Made by a program: the position numbers and the translations under genes. Shown piece after piece: positions 39,947-51,858 of a stretch of 64,000 bases of DNA. Origin of the DNA: Pseudomonadota bacterium (lineage in GTDB: Bacteria; Pseudomonadota; Alphaproteobacteria; Micavibrionales; CSBR16-224); the NCBI GenBank assembly GCA_013285465.1, contig CP053449.1:1177540-1241539 (forward strand), given 5' to 3'. Under the pieces are notes generated by a model. The model saw nothing but the letters and a program-made list of their open reading frames with translations. It was not told where the DNA came from and did not search any database. Numbering within the stretch: position 1 is the first letter of the stretch; each line of letters starts with the position of its first letter.

Positions 39947-40855
39947 ATGGGTGTGTACGATTATCGCGAGCAGCTGCTGACGACGGGGCAGGCGGATATC
40001 AATCTGCTTCTTCTCAAGGACCTTCTCAAACTCTCCGGCGGCGATTCCAATATTTTGACGATTCCGCAATCGCTTCATTATTTGCGTCAGGCGCTGGATA
40101 TGCTTGGGCGCAGTCCGACGGCGAAGAAAATTCTTCTGCAATGCGCCAAGGCGCGGCTGTTGATCAATCCCGATACGCTGCTGTCAACGGGCGAAACGCT
40201 GTTTCATCCCGATGACAATGTTCTGGATGTGCCCGCTCTGCAAGGTGTGCGCGGCGCAGAGCGGCATAAGCTGATGCTGGCGGAAATGACGGTTGCGCTG
40301 ATTGCAGGATTGCGCGAAGCGTCCCATTATCACCGCGGGCAGGCCTTTCACCCCGAGCTTTGCGTCCCCGATTACCTGCATCTTGCGCGCAGCGCCGATG
40401 CGGATCGCGTGGCTTTTGTTGTTCTGGTCTGTGATGAGCTCCGCGAAGCGGGCAATCCGCTGCCTTGGCGTCACCTTCTGGCGGGCGAGACGGGCGATAT
40501 TGCCGAAGTTTTTGAAGAAACCATGCTGCGGCATGACAATACCGAAATCGCATTGCGCGCCGCATACCGGCACTGGTTTGATTCCGGTGACCGCGAGGCC
40601 GCATCCGAGCACAAAGCGCTTGAAAATCTCGACCGGCTTCTGATGCATCTGCGCAGCAGCGGCGCGATGAGCGACTGGATCGGTCAGGCCGATCTGGCGG
40701 CGCCGACATGGGTGCGGCTGGGCGAACTGCCTGGGGGCGGCAATTATCTTGACCGCCGCCGCAATGCGCTGATGCGTCACGGCTATCGCGCACAGCCCTC
40801 CGACCTGTTCAACAGGGCGCATTTCAAGCAGATTATGCGCGAGCTTTTCGCATAG
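39947..40855 (+). CDS. Protein of unknown function, paralogue B
   Basis: 302 aa, soluble. It is a diverged tandem copy of the preceding protein (matching blocks listed there), with a different N-terminus (~95 residues, helical, 'LLLLKDLLKLSGGDSNIL'). The most conserved element of both is 'R-x-AY-x-x-W-F-x(5)R', suggesting a shared ligand or structural role. More GC-rich than paralogue A. AAGG about 12 nt before ATG. Confidence 0.75.
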   Translation: MGVYDYREQLLTTGQADINLLLLKDLLKLSGGDSNILTIPQSLHYLRQALDMLGRSPTAKKILLQCAKARLLINPDTLLSTGETLFHPDDNVLDVPALQGVRGAERHKLMLAEMTVALIAGLREASHYHRGQAFHPELCVPDYLHLARSADADRVAFVVLVCDELREAGNPLPWRHLLAGETGDIAEVFEETMLRHDNTEIALRAAYRHWFDSGDREAASEHKALENLDRLLMHLRSSGAMSDWIGQADLAAPTWVRLGELPGGGNYLDRRRNALMRHGYRAQPSDLFNRAHFKQIMRELFA

Positions 40856-45683: not shown

Positions 45684-46277
45684 TTAAGACATAATCTTAA
45701 ACCAAGTCTTGACAGCTAGGTTGAGCCGATCTTGTTCTAATTCATCCGTAGCTGTGCAATGGGCAATAGGTCCTCGTAACAAGTTGAGCTGGTTTGTAAC
45801 ATTGCTAACGGCTGTTTTTGACTGAAAGATAGGGTCAAACAAGTCCCAGTTATCGGTTATTAACTGTGCCAGTTCTCCAAATGTCGTGTAATCTATCAAG
45901 TTATCAGAGCGCGGAGTAATCCCGCTATCAATCTCTTTTTTGCGACTAGCGTTGGCTTTCTTTCTTATTCGGTCATCATCGACACGCTCGCTATCCCACC
46001 AGTCGGCTCCTTCAGCTTCTATCATTACATCGGCAACGAGTTTTCTTATTGAGTTCTCTAAGCAATAAAAAACTTCGTAAAACTCTGACATTCTTGCAGC
46101 TTCTTTGCGAAGATCCGCCTCAAATTGTTCATATTCCGAGAATTTTCTGCTTTTAGACTTCGTTTTTACGTGCCCGAGAGAAATATCATACTTTTTTTCA
46201 ATGTTTCTTAGGCCGGTTGTGATTTGCAACCCAGACATACCTAAAGCTCGTATTAATCCATCAGGTCTTTTAGGCAT
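45684..46277 (-). CDS. HEPN-domain protein (Swt1-like)
   Basis: 197 aa from ATG 46277 (GAG 9-12 nt upstream). The C-terminal two thirds match Swt1-like HEPN proteins: 'MSEFYEVFYCLENSIRKLVAD' (63-83), 'WWDSERV', 'LIDYTTFGELAQLITDNW' (128-144) and the HEPN motif R168-GPIA-H173 (R-x4-H; the usual N after R is G). HEPN domains are RNases or RNA-binding partners in toxin-antitoxin and abortive-infection systems. The start overlaps the DUF5343 stop by 8 nt. Strongly AT-rich compared with flanks, suggesting transfer. Confidence 0.82.
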   Translation of the reverse strand: MPKRPDGLIRALGMSGLQITTGLRNIEKKYDISLGHVKTKSKSRKFSEYEQFEADLRKEAARMSEFYEVFYCLENSIRKLVADVMIEAEGADWWDSERVDDDRIRKKANASRKKEIDSGITPRSDNLIDYTTFGELAQLITDNWDLFDPIFQSKTAVSNVTNQLNLLRGPIAHCTATDELEQDRLNLAVKTWFKIMS

Positions 46278-46914
46278 CTTCTGCACTCAATAAATTTTCT
46301 TTTAGGCTTTTGAAAATAGCGTCAAAAACTGCAGGGTCAGAAGTTGCAGGTAAGTTTAAATTGATAGTGTAGCCAAGATTTAAGCCAATAGAAGGAGACG
46401 GTTGCGAATTTTTTGCGTTGTGATTACTTTTATCATCCTCCATGTTTGGGGGATTGTTGTCAATTTTCGCGATGTGATTGTTTTCTTCATCACTAAAATC
46501 AGAGAAACTTTTTAAATGTTGAATGCAACTGACTATCAATTTTACAGGGTTTGAGTCGTGGGCATGACCAGTTTCTTCAACAACTAAACCTATTAGCTCT
46601 TCATCGTTCAGTTCGTGCATATACTCATTTCGCACATACAGAGGAGCATAGGCATCTTTAATGCATTGCGCTATAGCTTTGCCAGAGGATGTTGGGTTGC
46701 GAAATTTTCGATAGGTTTCATTAGGCGTACCGTCAGAATTTACTAAACTGATTTTCTTTAAAAAAGAGTTGATTTGATCGCCAGAACCTCCTGGTATTTT
46801 TAGAATTGTTTTTACGAAATCTAGGGTGACACGCTCAGGCACCCCTGCTTTCTTGATACCGTTTAAAGCTTTATCAATATTACCAGGAGATGTGATGTAT
46901 GGTAAAGTTGCCAT
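46270..46914 (-). CDS. DUF5343 protein
   Basis: 214 aa. Residues ~1-115 match DUF5343: 'LPYITSPGNIDKALNGIKKA', 'FLKKISLVNSDGTPNETYRK', 'AYAPLYVRNEYMHELNDEEL'. After a polar linker (~140-175) the C-terminus 'GYTINLNLPATSDPAVFDAI' followed by FKSLKENLL is a separate beta-alpha module often found in accessory proteins with HEPN partners. AAAGGA upstream of ATG. First gene of a two-gene AT-rich operon with the HEPN protein. Likely sensor or antitoxin, but this is inference. Confidence 0.82.
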   Translation of the reverse strand: MATLPYITSPGNIDKALNGIKKAGVPERVTLDFVKTILKIPGGSGDQINSFLKKISLVNSDGTPNETYRKFRNPTSSGKAIAQCIKDAYAPLYVRNEYMHELNDEELIGLVVEETGHAHDSNPVKLIVSCIQHLKSFSDFSDEENNHIAKIDNNPPNMEDDKSNHNAKNSQPSPSIGLNLGYTINLNLPATSDPAVFDAIFKSLKENLLSAEDA

Positions 46915-46965: not shown

Positions 46966-47814
46966 CTACTTCATTTTAAACGAGCAAACCAGCGTCGAAT
47001 TGATCACTTTCGGTGTCGGGCGGGTTTCGCGTTCGACCCGCATATTGAATTCTTCCAGCAGGGACGGCTTCACCGGATCATACAGCAGCGCATGCAGCCC
47101 TTCGGCTGAGCGCAGCGCAACCTCCGGCTCGTCATGTGCGGTGCTGCGGATTTGTTTCAGAACCTCTTTCTTGTCCGCGACAAGGCTTGCCACCATCACC
47201 AGCGCGGTATCACGGTAATCATATGCGCTGCCCGAGCTTTGCGTGAAATGCAGCTTGTCACTCATGCCGAGTTTTTCAGCCAGCGCTTCGCCGCGTTTGA
47301 CGGCGGCTTCATCCATATCAAGGCAGGTAATTTTCATGCCCGTTTTCTGCGCCATGATAATGGCGGTCAGGGGCAGGGGACCGCTGCCGATAAACACGAT
47401 TTCCTTATCCGGGTGTTTGCTGATGGAGACCTTTTCCAGCTCAAGATCGACAAGGTCAAGATAATTCTGCAAATACCAGAATTCATTGAGATTTTCTTCT
47501 TGAAAGTCGGGATTTTTCAGGAATTTGTCAGAGAAATAAAGCTCCATCGCATATTCGGCTTCCGAGAGTTCCGCCAGCATGGCGCGGCGCACGGCGCGGA
47601 TTTGCGGATTATCCAGCACCTGCTTTTTCTCGGAGTCAGAGAAATGTTCTTCGGCCAGCACGATGTTTTCCACCAGCGCGGACAGCGTTTCGGTAATCAG
47701 GGGATTGGTCGGGGAACGGTCACTGGCAGTTTTCAAGACCTCATGCGCGTAGAGTACCTGGGAAATCAACTCCTCTGCACAAATCTGCCGCACGATCTGA
47801 GGCTGTGCTGCCAT
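46966..47814 (-). CDS. Nicotianamine-synthase-like methyltransferase-fold protein
   Basis: 282 aa. 'FWYLQNYLDLVDLELEKV' (112-129) and 'EIVFIGSGPLPLTAIIMAQ' (138-156), followed by 'CLDMDEAAVKRGEALA', 'YRDTALVMVASLVADKKEVL', 'VALRSAEGLHALLYDPV' and 'PTPKVINSTLV', give the whole succession of blocks of nicotianamine synthase (PF03059), including bacterial CntL enzymes that add aminobutyrate from SAM in staphylopine/pseudopaline synthesis. No opine dehydrogenase or transporter gene is adjacent. GGAGGGG precedes ATG, so expression is likely efficient. Product may be a nicotianamine-like metal chelator (inference). Confidence 0.82.
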   Translation of the reverse strand: MAAQPQIVRQICAEELISQVLYAHEVLKTASDRSPTNPLITETLSALVENIVLAEEHFSDSEKKQVLDNPQIRAVRRAMLAELSEAEYAMELYFSDKFLKNPDFQEENLNEFWYLQNYLDLVDLELEKVSISKHPDKEIVFIGSGPLPLTAIIMAQKTGMKITCLDMDEAAVKRGEALAEKLGMSDKLHFTQSSGSAYDYRDTALVMVASLVADKKEVLKQIRSTAHDEPEVALRSAEGLHALLYDPVKPSLLEEFNMRVERETRPTPKVINSTLVCSFKMK

Positions 47815-47927: not shown

Positions 47928-47968
47928 TTGACATAATGTTAATTAACTGTTAATATAACCGCTGTAAT
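47928..47968 (+). promoter_or_regulatory. Promoter with CtrA-like box upstream of the four-paralogue operon
   Basis: TTGACA at 47928-47933 overlaps into TTAA-TTAACTG-TTAA (47939-47953), a TTAA-N7-TTAA box; TGTAAT (47963-47968) sits 9 nt after the box as -10, and another TAATAT lies 17 nt after TTGACA. Either a sigma-70 promoter or a CtrA-activated one. The ribosome binding site GAGG follows at 47983. Confidence 0.45.
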
Positions 47969-47995: not shown

Positions 47996-48832
47996 GTGAT
48001 GATTGGGGGACCGCTACCACCGTCGGAACTTCCCGAGGACCCGCAACTGCGGGCAGAGGTGGAGATTGCGCGTCCCACACCGGAAGAAATTCAACAGCAA
48101 TTCATCGATGCGGTCAAAAACCGTGACTATGATGCAATCTCCGCTACATTGGCACAGGGCGCGGATATTGACGCGGAAATAATCGACCGACAATATCGCG
48201 GTTACCGCAGCCACGGCAGCTCTTACTATACACGCACATATACATCGCCGCTTTTCTATGCGCTGGAGAAACAGGACGGGCAATTGCTGGATTTTCTGGT
48301 TGCACATGGCGTAGATGTCAATCGTGTTGATGAGAATAAAACCGCCGCACTAACCCATGCGGTTTACAAGGAAATAAAAGGCTTGGTGAAAACAATCGCC
48401 ACCGCCCCGGGATTTGACCCGAAAACGGCGGCGAACAAGGCGGCACTGCAAGCTGCGGAAAACATAAAGCATAACGGCCCCGCACAAAAAGAGCTGTATA
48501 AATACGCCAAAAGCATTTTCGCCGATCCGTGGCAGCTGGTTGATGATGACATCATCAGCCGCGTTAGCTTTGACAAAGACGGTATGCTGGAGGTCACCGA
48601 CCAGTTCAATTTCAAAGCGGGGGAACGTGTCCGCCATATCCGCGATTTTGAATTCGGCAGTATTCAGACAACATCCTGCTTTTTCGCTGATATGCCTGCC
48701 AATATGCGCGCGCAGTTGAAAGAAGCTTGGGATGAATTAAAAGCCGCAGGCGGCGGCAAGAATGCCGACCCGCAAAGCATGAATAGCGTGCGCTTGCGTC
48801 AGGTCACCCGCCGCGTTTCGCAAACACAGTAA
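47996..48832 (+). CDS. Ankyrin-type protein with novel C-terminal domain, paralogue 1
   Basis: 278 aa (GTG 47996 or ATG 47999; GAGG upstream). Residues ~33-145 form ankyrin-like repeats: 'QFIDAVKNRDYDAISATLAQ' continuing GADI, and 'SPLFYALEKQDGQLLDFLVA' continuing HGVDV. The ~95-residue C-terminal domain (179-270) starts W/D-D-x-I and contains 'GMLEVTDQFNFKAGERVRHI', RDFEFG, 'CFFADMPANMRAQLKEA', and is shared by all four paralogues. No known family was recognised for it. No signal peptide. First gene of a five-gene operon. Confidence 0.85.
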   Translation: MMIGGPLPPSELPEDPQLRAEVEIARPTPEEIQQQFIDAVKNRDYDAISATLAQGADIDAEIIDRQYRGYRSHGSSYYTRTYTSPLFYALEKQDGQLLDFLVAHGVDVNRVDENKTAALTHAVYKEIKGLVKTIATAPGFDPKTAANKAALQAAENIKHNGPAQKELYKYAKSIFADPWQLVDDDIISRVSFDKDGMLEVTDQFNFKAGERVRHIRDFEFGSIQTTSCFFADMPANMRAQLKEAWDELKAAGGGKNADPQSMNSVRLRQVTRRVSQTQ

Positions 48833-48846
48833 AAAGGTAGAGATTG

Positions 48847-49569
48847 ATGTCAATCAGTGCAAAAGAGATGGGAGAATTGCTGGAAAATATAGATTACGCA
48901 GCCATTGAGCGCGCTCTTCTCCAAGGCACAGATGCAAATCTGCACATCAAAGACCCTTACCGCACGAGCGGAACCCTGTTATATCTCGCGGTATATAGGC
49001 AGGATCCGACACTGGCGGATATCGCCTTGCGTCATGGCGGCGATCCCAATCTGGGAAGCGAGAATTCATCGCCATTATACAAGGCCGTCCATGAAGGTTA
49101 TTTCAGTTTTTGCCGTCAGATCACCGAGGCCGAAGACTTTGACCCGACCACGCCTCTGAACCGTAAAGCCTGGGTATTGGCGGAACGCTATCAAAATGAA
49201 AGCCCGCGCCATGCGCAAATCTACCGCCTGCTACAGAATGTCTTTGATACGGCGAATGGCTGGAAAAAAATGGATGACAGTTCTATCCAGCACATTTCCC
49301 GCACACCGGACCAGATGATCGAAGTTACGACAATTTTCAATTTCCGTGCCGCAAAAATGAAGGAAATCACGCGCGATTACGCCACCGGACGCAGCGATGT
49401 CGAAAGCACCTATTTCGCCGATCTGCCGCAAAATGCCCGCGAACAGGTTGTCGAAGCTTTGACGGAATTGCAGAAACAGGATGGCGGTCAGGATGTTGAC
49501 CCGCGCAGCCTGTCGGGTGTACGTCATATCCAGCGCAGCCGCGGGAAACAGGTGCAGACAAAATCATGA
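48847..49569 (+). CDS. Ankyrin-type protein with novel C-terminal domain, paralogue 2
   Basis: 240 aa from ATG 48847 (AAGGTAGAG upstream). Ankyrin part: 'DYAAIERALLQGTDANLHIK', 'LADIALRHGGDPNLGS', 'SPLYKAVHEGYFSFCRQI'. C-terminal domain: 'WKKMDDSSIQHISRTPDQMI', 'EVTTIFNFRAAKMKEITRD', 'STYFADLPQNAREQVVEALTEL' spread over the last ~100 residues. It is the shortest copy, and lacks an N-terminal extension. Its stop overlaps the next start as ATGA. Confidence 0.85.
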   Translation: MSISAKEMGELLENIDYAAIERALLQGTDANLHIKDPYRTSGTLLYLAVYRQDPTLADIALRHGGDPNLGSENSSPLYKAVHEGYFSFCRQITEAEDFDPTTPLNRKAWVLAERYQNESPRHAQIYRLLQNVFDTANGWKKMDDSSIQHISRTPDQMIEVTTIFNFRAAKMKEITRDYATGRSDVESTYFADLPQNAREQVVEALTELQKQDGGQDVDPRSLSGVRHIQRSRGKQVQTKS

Positions 49570-50300
49570 GCAAAAAAGACGATAAAAATTGGCAGAAAGA
49601 ATTCCGCAAGGCGCTGAAAGCGAAAGATTGCGCCGCGCTGGATATCGCGCTGCAAAACGGCGCAAACCCGAATGCCAAAGTCACGATTGACGGCGACCAA
49701 TACGGTTCGGCACTGTGGTATGCGCTGGTCGAAGAGGAGCTGGGGCTGGTCAAAACCCTGCTGAAATATGATCTGAACCCGAATAAGAAGGATGAGGATT
49801 ACAGCTGCCTGCCGCTGCAATATGCCGTGGATGAAGATTTGATGGATGCGGCGCTGGCCATCGCACAGCATGAAAGACTGGCGCTGTTTTCCGAAGATAC
49901 GCAAGAGGTCTACGAAGAATCCGAAAACAACCGCGATGATGATGCGGAATATGAGGCGCTGTACCGCTGCCTGAAAGCACGGATCGAAACCGCTGACGGA
50001 CCGTGGCGCAAAATCTCCAATGACAGCGTGCAATATACGGAATTCGCCAGCGCGGGCATGGTTGAAATCACAGATGTTTTCAATTTCCGCAGCGGCAAAC
50101 AGACGCATATCATCCGTGATTTTGAGACGGAAACAACGACCTCCACGGATTGCTATTTCGATGATGCGCCGCGCGCCGCGCAAAAGATTATCAGCGAGGC
50201 CTTCGCCGCATTGCAAAAGGCGGGTGGCGCCAAAGAGCTGGAGCCGCATCAATTCGCGGGTATGCGCTATGTTTCACGCCGTACTGTGAAAAGGGGGTAA
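49566..50300 (+). CDS. Ankyrin-type protein with novel C-terminal domain, paralogue 3
   Basis: 244 aa. ATGA overlap with paralogue 2 proves translational coupling. Ankyrin part: 'EFRKALKAKDCAALDIALQN' continuing GANP, 'YGSALWYALVEEELGLVKTL', 'LPLQYAVDEDLMDAALAIA'. An acidic loop ('EDTQEVYEESENNRDDDAEY') separates it from the C-terminal domain 'PWRKISNDSVQYTEFASAGM', 'VEITDVFNFRSGKQTHIIRD', 'CYFDDAPRAAQKIISEAFAAL'. Confidence 0.85.
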   Translation: MSKKDDKNWQKEFRKALKAKDCAALDIALQNGANPNAKVTIDGDQYGSALWYALVEEELGLVKTLLKYDLNPNKKDEDYSCLPLQYAVDEDLMDAALAIAQHERLALFSEDTQEVYEESENNRDDDAEYEALYRCLKARIETADGPWRKISNDSVQYTEFASAGMVEITDVFNFRSGKQTHIIRDFETETTTSTDCYFDDAPRAAQKIISEAFAALQKAGGAKELEPHQFAGMRYVSRRTVKRG

Positions 50301-50302
50301 TC

Positions 50303-51115
50303 ATGGCAATTGATTTAGGTTTTGACGATCATTGGGATCCGCCGCCGCCGACGCCCGCACCTGCTCCTGAAAAAAAAGAGGAGAAAAAGCCCGACTGGCA
50401 GGCGCTTTTCGTTAAGGCGCTAAAGAAAACGGATTATGACGGCGTCAAAGAGGCGCTGTCCAATGGCGCAGATCCGGAGGTGAAAATCCGTGTTCCGCGC
50501 GGCTATGATTATTCCGACCTCACCTATCAAACGGCGATGTTTTTTGCGCTAAACCATATCAAGGACACCCGTATGATGGATATTCTTGTCGCGGGCGGTG
50601 TGGATGTGAATGCCGTTGACGGCAACAAAAAATCGCTTTTGCGGGCGGCTGTCGGCAATAATTATGCCGTATTGGCGCTGCATGTGGCGAAATATGACGG
50701 TGTGGATTTTACTTCCGCCGGCGCGCAGAAGGCTTACGAACTGGCAGCGGAAAAACGCCATAAAGAACCGCAAATGGAGGCTGTCTACCGCTATCTCCAT
50801 ATGAAGCTGGAGGAGCTGAAGGGCCCGTGGCGCAAAACCGCCGATGACAGCATCAAATATGTCAGCTACGACAATGACGGCATGACGGAAATCTCCGACA
50901 CATTCAATTTCCGCGCTGCAAAGCAAAGCCGCGTCATTCGCGATTTTGATACCAAATCCATGCTGACGACGGAAACCTATTTTGCCGATATCCCCGTCAA
51001 TGCGCAGGGCTTTGTGCGCGAAGCCTTTGATGAATTGAAAAAACAGGGCGGGGCTGTAAAAATCGATCCGCATATTCCCGGCCATATGCGCCGCTATGTC
51101 AGCCGTAAAAGATGA
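50303..51115 (+). CDS. Ankyrin-type protein with novel C-terminal domain, paralogue 4
   Basis: 270 aa; AAGGGGG 5 nt before ATG. A Pro/Lys-rich N-terminus ('PPPPTPAPAPEKKEEKKPDW') precedes ankyrin repeats ('LFVKALKKTDYDGVKEALSN' continuing GADP, 'TAMFFALNHIKDTRMMDILV' continuing AGGVDV). C-terminal domain: 'PWRKTADDSIKYVSYDNDGM', 'TEISDTFNFRAAKQSRVIRD', 'TYFADIPVNAQGFVREAFDEL'. Its stop overlaps the start of the hydroxylase gene by 4 nt. Confidence 0.85.
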   Translation: MAIDLGFDDHWDPPPPTPAPAPEKKEEKKPDWQALFVKALKKTDYDGVKEALSNGADPEVKIRVPRGYDYSDLTYQTAMFFALNHIKDTRMMDILVAGGVDVNAVDGNKKSLLRAAVGNNYAVLALHVAKYDGVDFTSAGAQKAYELAAEKRHKEPQMEAVYRYLHMKLEELKGPWRKTADDSIKYVSYDNDGMTEISDTFNFRAAKQSRVIRDFDTKSMLTTETYFADIPVNAQGFVREAFDELKKQGGAVKIDPHIPGHMRRYVSRKR

Positions 51116-51858
51116 TTGCCGGAAAGCTCGCCTTTGTTTTGGCCGCACTGGCTGCTTTGTTCCTGCTGGAACGCTTCAGGTCATTTATCAGAAAAAATAA
51201 GCATCATGCTGAAGATATTGTAAAAAACTTTGCGCTTTGGGGCCTAAATGCGCTGTTGTCGCTGGCGGTGATCCTGCCTGTGACAAAACTTGCCGCAAGT
51301 GTTGATCTCTGGGGGCGGGGCGCGGGCGGCATCGTCAGTATTATCCTGCATATCCTGCTGCTGGATTTCTGGGTCTATTGGTGGCACCGCGCCAATCACC
51401 GTTTTGACTTTCTCTGGCGGTTTCACCGCGTGCATCATCTCGATAAGATGCTCGATACATCAACGGCGGTGCGCTTCCATTTCGGGGAGGTATTTTTATC
51501 CGCGCTGGCGCGCATTCCCGTCATTCTGCTGTTTGCCATCCCGTTTCGCGATATCGTCATTTTTGAAACCGTGCTGCTGATTGCGGCTTTCTTCCAGCAT
51601 GCCAATATCCGCCTGCCGGAGAAACTGGAAAAACCGCTCTCCCGCATTATCGTCACGCCTTCCATCCATTGGGTGCATCACCATGCCGACAGCCGCGACA
51701 TGCACAGCCGCTACTGCCTGCTGCTCAGCATCTGGGATCATGTCTTCCGCAGCACCACAAACGGAACCCGCAAGGAAGATATGGCACTCGGCGTGCCGGG
51801 CGATAAAGACCGCAGCCTGCGGGATTTGCTGCTGCTGCCGTTTCGTAGAGGCGGGTAA
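51112..51858 (+). CDS. Membrane fatty-acid hydroxylase / sterol desaturase superfamily
   Basis: 248 aa, four to five membrane helices. The di-iron histidine boxes are present: 'WWHRANHRF' , 'WRFHRVHHLDK' and 'HWVHHHADSRDMHSRYC', with an extra His in 'RFHFGE'. Members hydroxylate or desaturate lipids, sterols or carotenoids. The ATGA overlap with the fourth ankyrin paralogue places it at the end of that operon, which is the only functional hint for those proteins: a membrane-lipid related role (inference). Confidence 0.9.
   Translation: MIAGKLAFVLAALAALFLLERFRSFIRKNKHHAEDIVKNFALWGLNALLSLAVILPVTKLAASVDLWGRGAGGIVSIILHILLLDFWVYWWHRANHRFDFLWRFHRVHHLDKMLDTSTAVRFHFGEVFLSALARIPVILLFAIPFRDIVIFETVLLIAAFFQHANIRLPEKLEKPLSRIIVTPSIHWVHHHADSRDMHSRYCLLLSIWDHVFRSTTNGTRKEDMALGVPGDKDRSLRDLLLLPFRRGG

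What the first reader, a model, noticed from the sequence alone, without database searches (positions are those of the whole stretch)
47996..51858. Four tandem ankyrin paralogues with an unrecognised shared C-terminal domain, coupled to a membrane hydroxylase
Four consecutive genes encode proteins of 240-278 aa with variable ankyrin-type N-termini and one conserved ~95-residue C-terminal domain: W-x(2)-x-DDSI, then GM-x-E-[IV]-[TS]-x-x-FNF-[RK]-[AS]-[AG], then a RD-[FY] pair, then YFADxPxNAxxxVxEA. I recognise no family for it. All genes are spaced by at most 14 nt or overlap (ATGA twice), ending in a fatty-acid hydroxylase/sterol desaturase gene. Duplicated, diverging recognition modules on a constant effector-like domain look like a specificity array, perhaps a defence, conflict or membrane-lipid regulatory system. 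The function is inference; the repeat structure is directly visible.
Basis: partly seen in the sequence, partly recalled or inferred. Interest (0 to 1): 0.82.

Follow-up and report, generated by a model that had tools for sequence, protein, structure and literature searches.

The report
Ankyrin paralogue array with order-restricted domain
Four neighbouring genes in a Micavibrio-related bacterium encode binding proteins with different ankyrin arms and the same uncatalogued C-terminal domain, part of a large family found so far only in this bacterial order; the hydroxylase gene next to them is probably just a neighbour.

Summary
Four tandem genes (window 47999-51115) encode ankyrin-type proteins of 240-277 aa sharing one C-terminal domain of about 80 residues. 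It matches nothing in Pfam, NCBIfam, PHROGs or PADLOC. AlphaFold2 predicts five antiparallel strands plus a helix with good confidence, and no solved structure matches convincingly. The array is one locus of a much larger family: 20 copies in this genome, up to 32 in relatives, present in 27 of 142 genomes of the order (relatives are titled Micavibrio sp. / Alphaproteobacteria MAGs) and in no other genome of two samples of 385 (class) and 398 (phylum). Copies usually sit in tandem arrays of 2-4 made by local duplication. The hydroxylase link fails. A congener keeps two array genes at the same site without the hydroxylase; a family member keeps the hydroxylase beside the same peptidase without the array. 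Both halves are under purifying selection, so nothing suggests a fast-evolving defence array. Most likely these are two-part adaptors: a variable ankyrin arm and a constant docking domain. The genome encodes much of a Dot/Icm-like type IVB secretion system, so they may be exported ankyrin effectors, but this is unproven. A real new domain family, of moderate interest.

The parts
47928..47956 (+). sigma-70-like promoter of the array (TTGACA, 17 bp, TAATAT)
   Evidence: read from sequence; TTGACA-like boxes recur upstream of other copies in the genome but not beyond what shuffles give
47999..48832 (+). array gene 1 (ATG 47999; alternative GTG 47996): ankyrin arm + C-terminal domain, 277 aa
48527..48760 (+). 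shared C-terminal beta5-alpha domain of gene 1
   Evidence: HMM match E 1.5e-22
48847..49569 (+). array gene 2: ankyrin arm + C-terminal domain, 240 aa
49258..49491 (+). shared C-terminal domain of gene 2
   Evidence: HMM match E 1.2e-24
49566..50300 (+). array gene 3: ankyrin arm + C-terminal domain, 244 aa; ATGA overlap with gene 2
50001..50234 (+). shared C-terminal domain of gene 3
   Evidence: HMM match E 2.7e-23
50303..51115 (+). array gene 4: ankyrin arm + C-terminal domain, 270 aa; modelled by AlphaFold2
50825..51055 (+). shared C-terminal domain of gene 4 (five strands + helix)
   Evidence: HMM match E 5.2e-26; models
51056..51112 (+). flexible basic C-terminal tail of gene 4 (ends HMRRYVSRKR); similar basic tails in most copies of this genus
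51112..51858 (+). fatty-acid hydroxylase superfamily gene; same transcription unit here, but judged an independent neighbour
   Evidence: PF04116 E 5.2e-24; comparative synteny

Best explanation
The genes encode two-part adaptor proteins. The N-terminal ankyrin repeats differ between copies and bind different protein partners. The constant C-terminal domain (five antiparallel strands and a helix, with a short tail) docks all copies onto one shared, conserved partner. The family grew by repeated local tandem duplication within one alphaproteobacterial order, and the copies are kept as stable paralogues under purifying selection. Shown: the family, its architecture, its spread, duplication and selection. 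Inferred: that the arms bind different targets and that the constant domain docks to a common partner. Where they act is open. I give about 0.35 to export through the Dot/Icm-like type IVB system encoded by the genome, and a similar weight to a purely intracellular role. The hydroxylase gene is not a functional partner.
For: Homologous domain in all four and 20 matches in the genome. The domain sits at the C-terminal end of the proteins examined; 74 of 97 scanned members match Pfam ankyrin families and none matches a known family over the C-terminal domain. Confident predicted fold (pLDDT about 90 over the domain). Invariant residues are mostly hydrophobic or aromatic (W, F-N-F, F, A, L) with no catalytic-looking set, which suits a binding domain better than an enzyme. 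C-domain identity exceeds arm identity between paralogues, and dN/dS is purifying in both parts. Tandem duplicates cluster by locus in the tree: window 4 + G003 4 + G004 2 form one clade, support 0.997. 79 of 101 copies examined lie in same-strand arrays of 2-4.
Against: No binding partner is known for either half. Lack of catalytic residues is inferred from conservation, not tested. The loci were partly chosen because they held several hits, so the tandem fraction is biased upward. Different targets for the arms are assumed from their divergence only.
Confidence: 0.55

Rival explanations
1. Exported ankyrin effectors of a Dot/Icm-like type IVB secretion system, acting in prey bacteria or protists; the constant domain and/or its tail is read by the coupling complex or a chaperone. 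(A specific version of the adaptor model.)
For: The genome encodes DotF, DotG, DotH and DotI-like proteins in one cluster and a DotL-like coupling protein with DotM elsewhere. DotH is found in 132 of 142 genomes of the order. A published survey reports Dot/Icm-like systems in seven Micavibrionales (PMC9418006). Ankyrin proteins are a known class of type IV effectors (Pan et al. 2008, cited in PMC4686830). Copies are scattered over the genome, and no Sec-type signal peptide is apparent by eye. A short tail motif recurs: basic R-x-[IV]-x-[RK][RK] in 25 of 36 copies of this genus against a shuffle mean of 4.3; hydrophobic-x-K-[PK] in 21 of 44 of another family against 1.6 (patterns chosen after looking).
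Against: DotH is nearly universal in the order but the domain is in only 27 of 142 genomes, so co-occurrence carries no information. Tails are basic, unlike the acidic E-block reported for Legionella signals (own knowledge). The domain was seen only on ankyrin-type proteins, whereas an export module would be expected on varied cargo. An IcmB-type ATPase was not found with the Pfam model tried. Stable 1:1 orthologues under purifying selection are not typical of an arms race.
Confidence: 0.35
2. Strictly intracellular adaptors or regulators, for example linking different clients to one cellular machine. (The other version of the adaptor model.)
For: No apparent signal peptides; many sit between housekeeping genes; purifying selection and 1:1 orthologues. 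One copy lies beside an AAA ATPase gene (L043).
Against: Neighbours differ from locus to locus, so no common pathway is indicated; absent from most of the order, so not a core function.
Confidence: 0.35
3. Immunity or self-protection ankyrin proteins, like Bd3460 of Bdellovibrio, neutralising the organism's own secreted enzymes.
For: Ankyrin immunity proteins exist (PMC4686830); tandem immunity arrays are known; window and G004 arrays lie next to M16 peptidase genes.
Against: Bd3460 has a signal peptide and sits next to its target enzyme; no export signal is apparent here, other arrays lie next to unrelated genes, and G005 keeps the M16 peptidase without the array. A constant second domain is not part of that design.
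Confidence: 0.1
4. A membrane-lipid regulatory system in which the array controls the co-transcribed hydroxylase.
For: ATGA overlap of gene 4 and the hydroxylase in both G000 and G003.
Against: Array without hydroxylase in G004; hydroxylase at the same peptidase site without array in G005; hydroxylase orthologues at 43-51% identity in genomes where no domain copy lies nearby; none of the other arrays examined was seen beside a hydroxylase.
Confidence: 0.04
5. An anti-phage defence or conflict specificity array.
For: A candidate defence pair (PADLOC PDC-M34 A+B) lies 1.1 kb upstream; weak PADLOC hit PDC-M72A.
Against: The PDC-M72A match covers only ankyrin repeats. The M34 pair is on the other strand, separated by a NAS-like gene, and absent from the syntenic G003 contig that keeps the array. 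No diversifying selection, no phage, plasmid or viral-contig relatives.
Confidence: 0.05

Closest known systems
Ankyrin-repeat effectors of Dot/Icm systems (Legionella, Coxiella Ank proteins)
   Same: bacterial ankyrin proteins without apparent signal peptide, many paralogues in a genome that encodes type IVB components
   Different: a constant C-terminal domain absent from those families, basic rather than acidic tails, no evidence of translocation; NCBIfam AnkY/AnkH/AnkJ models match far below cut-off through the repeats only
Bd3460 ankyrin self-protection protein of Bdellovibrio
   Same: ankyrin protein in a predator-like lineage
   Different: Bd3460 is a six-repeat periplasmic protein with a signal peptide encoded next to its target enzyme; no C-terminal beta domain (PMC4686830)
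Polo-box domain
   Same: weak similarity of predicted fold: strands followed by a helix, Z 6.4 over 69 residues
   Different: Z under 8 and no Foldseek E below 0.001; 9% identity; treated as a common arrangement, not kinship
PADLOC PDC-M72A candidate defence protein
   Same: ankyrin repeats (best E 5.5e-6)
   Different: match stops at the repeats; the shared C-terminal domain is not covered
Ornithine-lipid hydroxylase OlsE / fatty acid hydroxylase superfamily (neighbour gene)
   Same: PF04116 domain
   Different: 84 bits against an OlsE cut-off of 475, so substrate unknown

Membership tests
Ankyrin-repeat proteins (Pfam Ank clan) | ankyrin repeats recognised by profile | tested here: met
   P0001 over the Ank_4 cut-off, others E 0.03-2e-4; 74 of 97 family members match Ank_2
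Ankyrin-repeat proteins (Pfam Ank clan) | stacked helix-pair fold | tested here: met
   AF2 model helices 32-173; top Foldseek hits are ankyrin proteins and DARPins
Any catalogued family for the C-terminal domain | profile match over the C-terminal 80 residues | tested here: not met
   none in Pfam, NCBIfam, PADLOC; one PHROGs hit of E 0.24 reaching the region is not significant; best PDB sequence hit E 0.013 to a dynein chain, not credible
Dot/Icm ankyrin effectors | type IVB secretion system in the genome | tested here: met
   DotF/G/H/I-like and DotL/DotM; an IcmB-type ATPase was not found by PF19044
Dot/Icm ankyrin effectors | Dot/Icm-dependent translocation | not testable with these tools
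   needs experiment
Dot/Icm ankyrin effectors | C-terminal translocation signal | tested here: inconclusive
   recurrent but lineage-specific basic or Lys-Pro tails; signal of this order unknown
Dot/Icm ankyrin effectors | match to a known Ank effector family | tested here: not met
   AnkY 16.7 bits against 600, AnkJ 13.6 against 300, AnkH 11.2 against 600
Bd3460-type self-protection proteins | gene next to the enzyme it inhibits | tested here: not met
   neighbours vary from locus to locus; the M16 peptidase near the window array is kept without the array in G005
Bd3460-type self-protection proteins | signal peptide | not tested
   no predictor on hand; N-termini look hydrophilic by eye
Polo-box domain | fold match | tested here: inconclusive
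   Z 6.4, rmsd 2.8, 69 aligned
PDC-M72A (PADLOC) | full-length match | tested here: not met
   profile positions 229-363 of 392 only, through the repeats
   linked only in G000 and G003; unlinked or lost elsewhere

The most novel reading that the evidence does not exclude
The beta5-alpha domain with its tail is a dedicated docking/export module by which Micavibrio-related bacteria feed a duplicated set of ankyrin effectors into a Dot/Icm-like secretion system aimed at prey bacteria or protists.
Probability: 0.25. Interest if true: 0.78.

Novelty: new variant of a known kind. Interest (0 to 1): 0.45.

Why it matters
It defines a protein domain family that is not in Pfam, has a confident predicted fold, and reaches 20-32 copies per genome in a poorly studied order that includes predatory bacteria. 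If the copies are exported, they would be a candidate effector set for the type IVB system that is nearly universal there; if not, they are a clear example of lineage-specific expansion of ankyrin adaptors.

Tried and rejected
Coupling to the hydroxylase: rejected by synteny. Defence array: no diversifying selection and no complete PADLOC match. Phage or plasmid origin: no relatives in phages, plasmids or viral contigs. Shared regulatory motif upstream of the copies: TTGACATA in 7 of 10 upstream regions, but shuffles reach 7 as well. Solved-structure relatives by sequence and fold: none convincing. Co-occurrence of the domain with DotH: uninformative because DotH is nearly universal in the order.

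Full report
Check of the observation. They encode proteins of 277, 240, 244 and 270 aa. The C-terminal 80 residues are 35-49% identical between the paralogues and the N-terminal parts 24-36%. Invariant residues include W, FNF, RD, F-x-D-x-P and EA. The N-terminal parts match Pfam ankyrin models and the C-terminal parts match nothing.

Organism. The window lies in a 2.67-Mb single-contig genome. DotH-based relatives in named genomes are titled Micavibrio sp. or Alphaproteobacteria MAGs. The order is therefore most likely Micavibrionales; this is an inference from record titles.

A large family. A profile of the domain finds 20 copies in this genome. It is in all seven genomes of the family, most of a second family (up to 32 copies in one genome), and three genomes of a third: 27 of 142 genomes of the order. 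In even samples of 385 genomes of the class and 398 of the phylum only the window's own genome matches. Phage, plasmid and viral-contig searches are empty. Of 97 members scanned, 74 match an ankyrin model and none matches a known family at the C-terminus. The large members that were scanned singly show only weak or no further domains.

Arrays. Of 101 copies in the loci examined, 79 stand in same-strand arrays of 2-4, most with gaps of -4 to 19 nt, 13 of 47 junctions being 4-nt overlaps (loci with several hits were favoured when fetching). In the tree the window copies, their four counterparts in G003 and two in G004 form one clade (0.997), with G004 holding orthologues of genes 1 and 2; other arrays also cluster by locus. 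So arrays arise by local duplication.

Selection. Between G000 and G003 the ankyrin part shows dN/dS of 0.13-0.17 and the C-domain 0.04-0.16. Both are under purifying selection; the ankyrin part changes somewhat faster at the protein level. This does not look like a rapidly diversifying recognition array.

The hydroxylase. P0005 is a PF04116 protein, far below the OlsE cut-off. Its orthologues (43-51% identity) occur in two further genera of the family and in seven genomes of another family of the order, and none of those nine neighbourhoods holds a copy of the domain. G004 has two array genes between the NAS-like gene and the M16 peptidase pair without any hydroxylase; G005 has the hydroxylase tail-to-tail with the M16 peptidase without any array. 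The hydroxylase therefore belonged to this site independently and the pairing is local to two species.

Structure. AlphaFold2 with the four window sequences gives a good model (mean pLDDT 82, about 90 over the C-domain): ankyrin helices, then strands 176-180, 183-189, 195-202, 207-214, 219-226 and helix 232-247 of gene 4; the isolated domain folds the same way. Foldseek finds no PDB match below E 0.001 and no viral match. The VIA realignment gives polo-box domains at Z 6.4, below the level at which a match means more than a common arrangement.

Tails. After the helix comes a flexible tail. In this genus it is basic, with R-x(0,2)-[IVY]-x(1,2)-[RK][RK] in 25 of 36 copies against 4.3 in shuffles; in another family of the order a hydrophobic-x-K-[PK] motif appears in 21 of 44 against 1.6. 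The patterns were chosen after seeing the tails and the copies are related, so this is a lead only.

Secretion system. The genome encodes DotF-, DotG-, DotH- and DotI-like proteins in one cluster (about 1,563,000-1,567,600) and a DotL-like coupling protein with DotM (about 2,521,300-2,525,900); an IcmB-type ATPase was not found with PF19044. DotH occurs in 132 of 142 genomes of the order. Dot/Icm-like systems in Micavibrionales have been reported (PMC9418006), while the first Micavibrio aeruginosavorus genome paper reported no type IV secretion system (PMC3189940). This makes export possible, not shown.

Conclusion. The best-supported reading is a family of two-part adaptors with a variable ankyrin arm and a constant docking domain, expanded within one order. 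Export as Dot/Icm-type effectors and a purely intracellular role are about equally likely. The coupling to lipid hydroxylation and the defence reading are not supported.

Noticed in passing
window 45684-46914 (- strand): DUF5343 protein plus Swt1-type HEPN protein, overlapping genes, matching the PADLOC candidate defence pair PDC-M34 A+B (E 1e-40 and 2e-35); lies in a low-GC patch and is absent from the syntenic G003 contig, so probably a recent insertion.
   Followed up: partly
window 46966-47814 (- strand): Nicotianamine-synthase-like protein (PF03059, E 1.7e-28) divergently transcribed from the array and kept at this site in G003 and G004; a bacterial metallophore or opine-type enzyme is possible.
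   Followed up: partly
G000:C1:1563000-1567600 and 2521300-2525900 (L151, L152, L185): Dot/Icm-like type IVB secretion genes (DotF, DotG, DotH, DotI; DotL with DotM); DotH is in 132 of 142 genomes of the order, although the 2011 Micavibrio aeruginosavorus paper reported no type IV secretion system.
   Followed up: partly
L043:438-2132: AAA ATPase (AAA plus AAA_lid_6) gene directly downstream of a 520-aa member of the ankyrin/C-domain family.
   Followed up: no
L185:5280-6293: Sel1-repeat protein gene a few kilobases upstream of the DotM/DotL genes, another eukaryote-like repeat protein.
   Followed up: no
L112, L117, L121, L122, L127, L128: In the second family of the order an array of the same domain recurs at one site next to genes that look like tyrosine catabolism (HPPD-like and fumarylacetoacetase-like, judged by eye), apparently a conserved insertion site.
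   Followed up: no
window 39947-40855: DUF6782 putative metallopeptidase gene.
   Followed up: no
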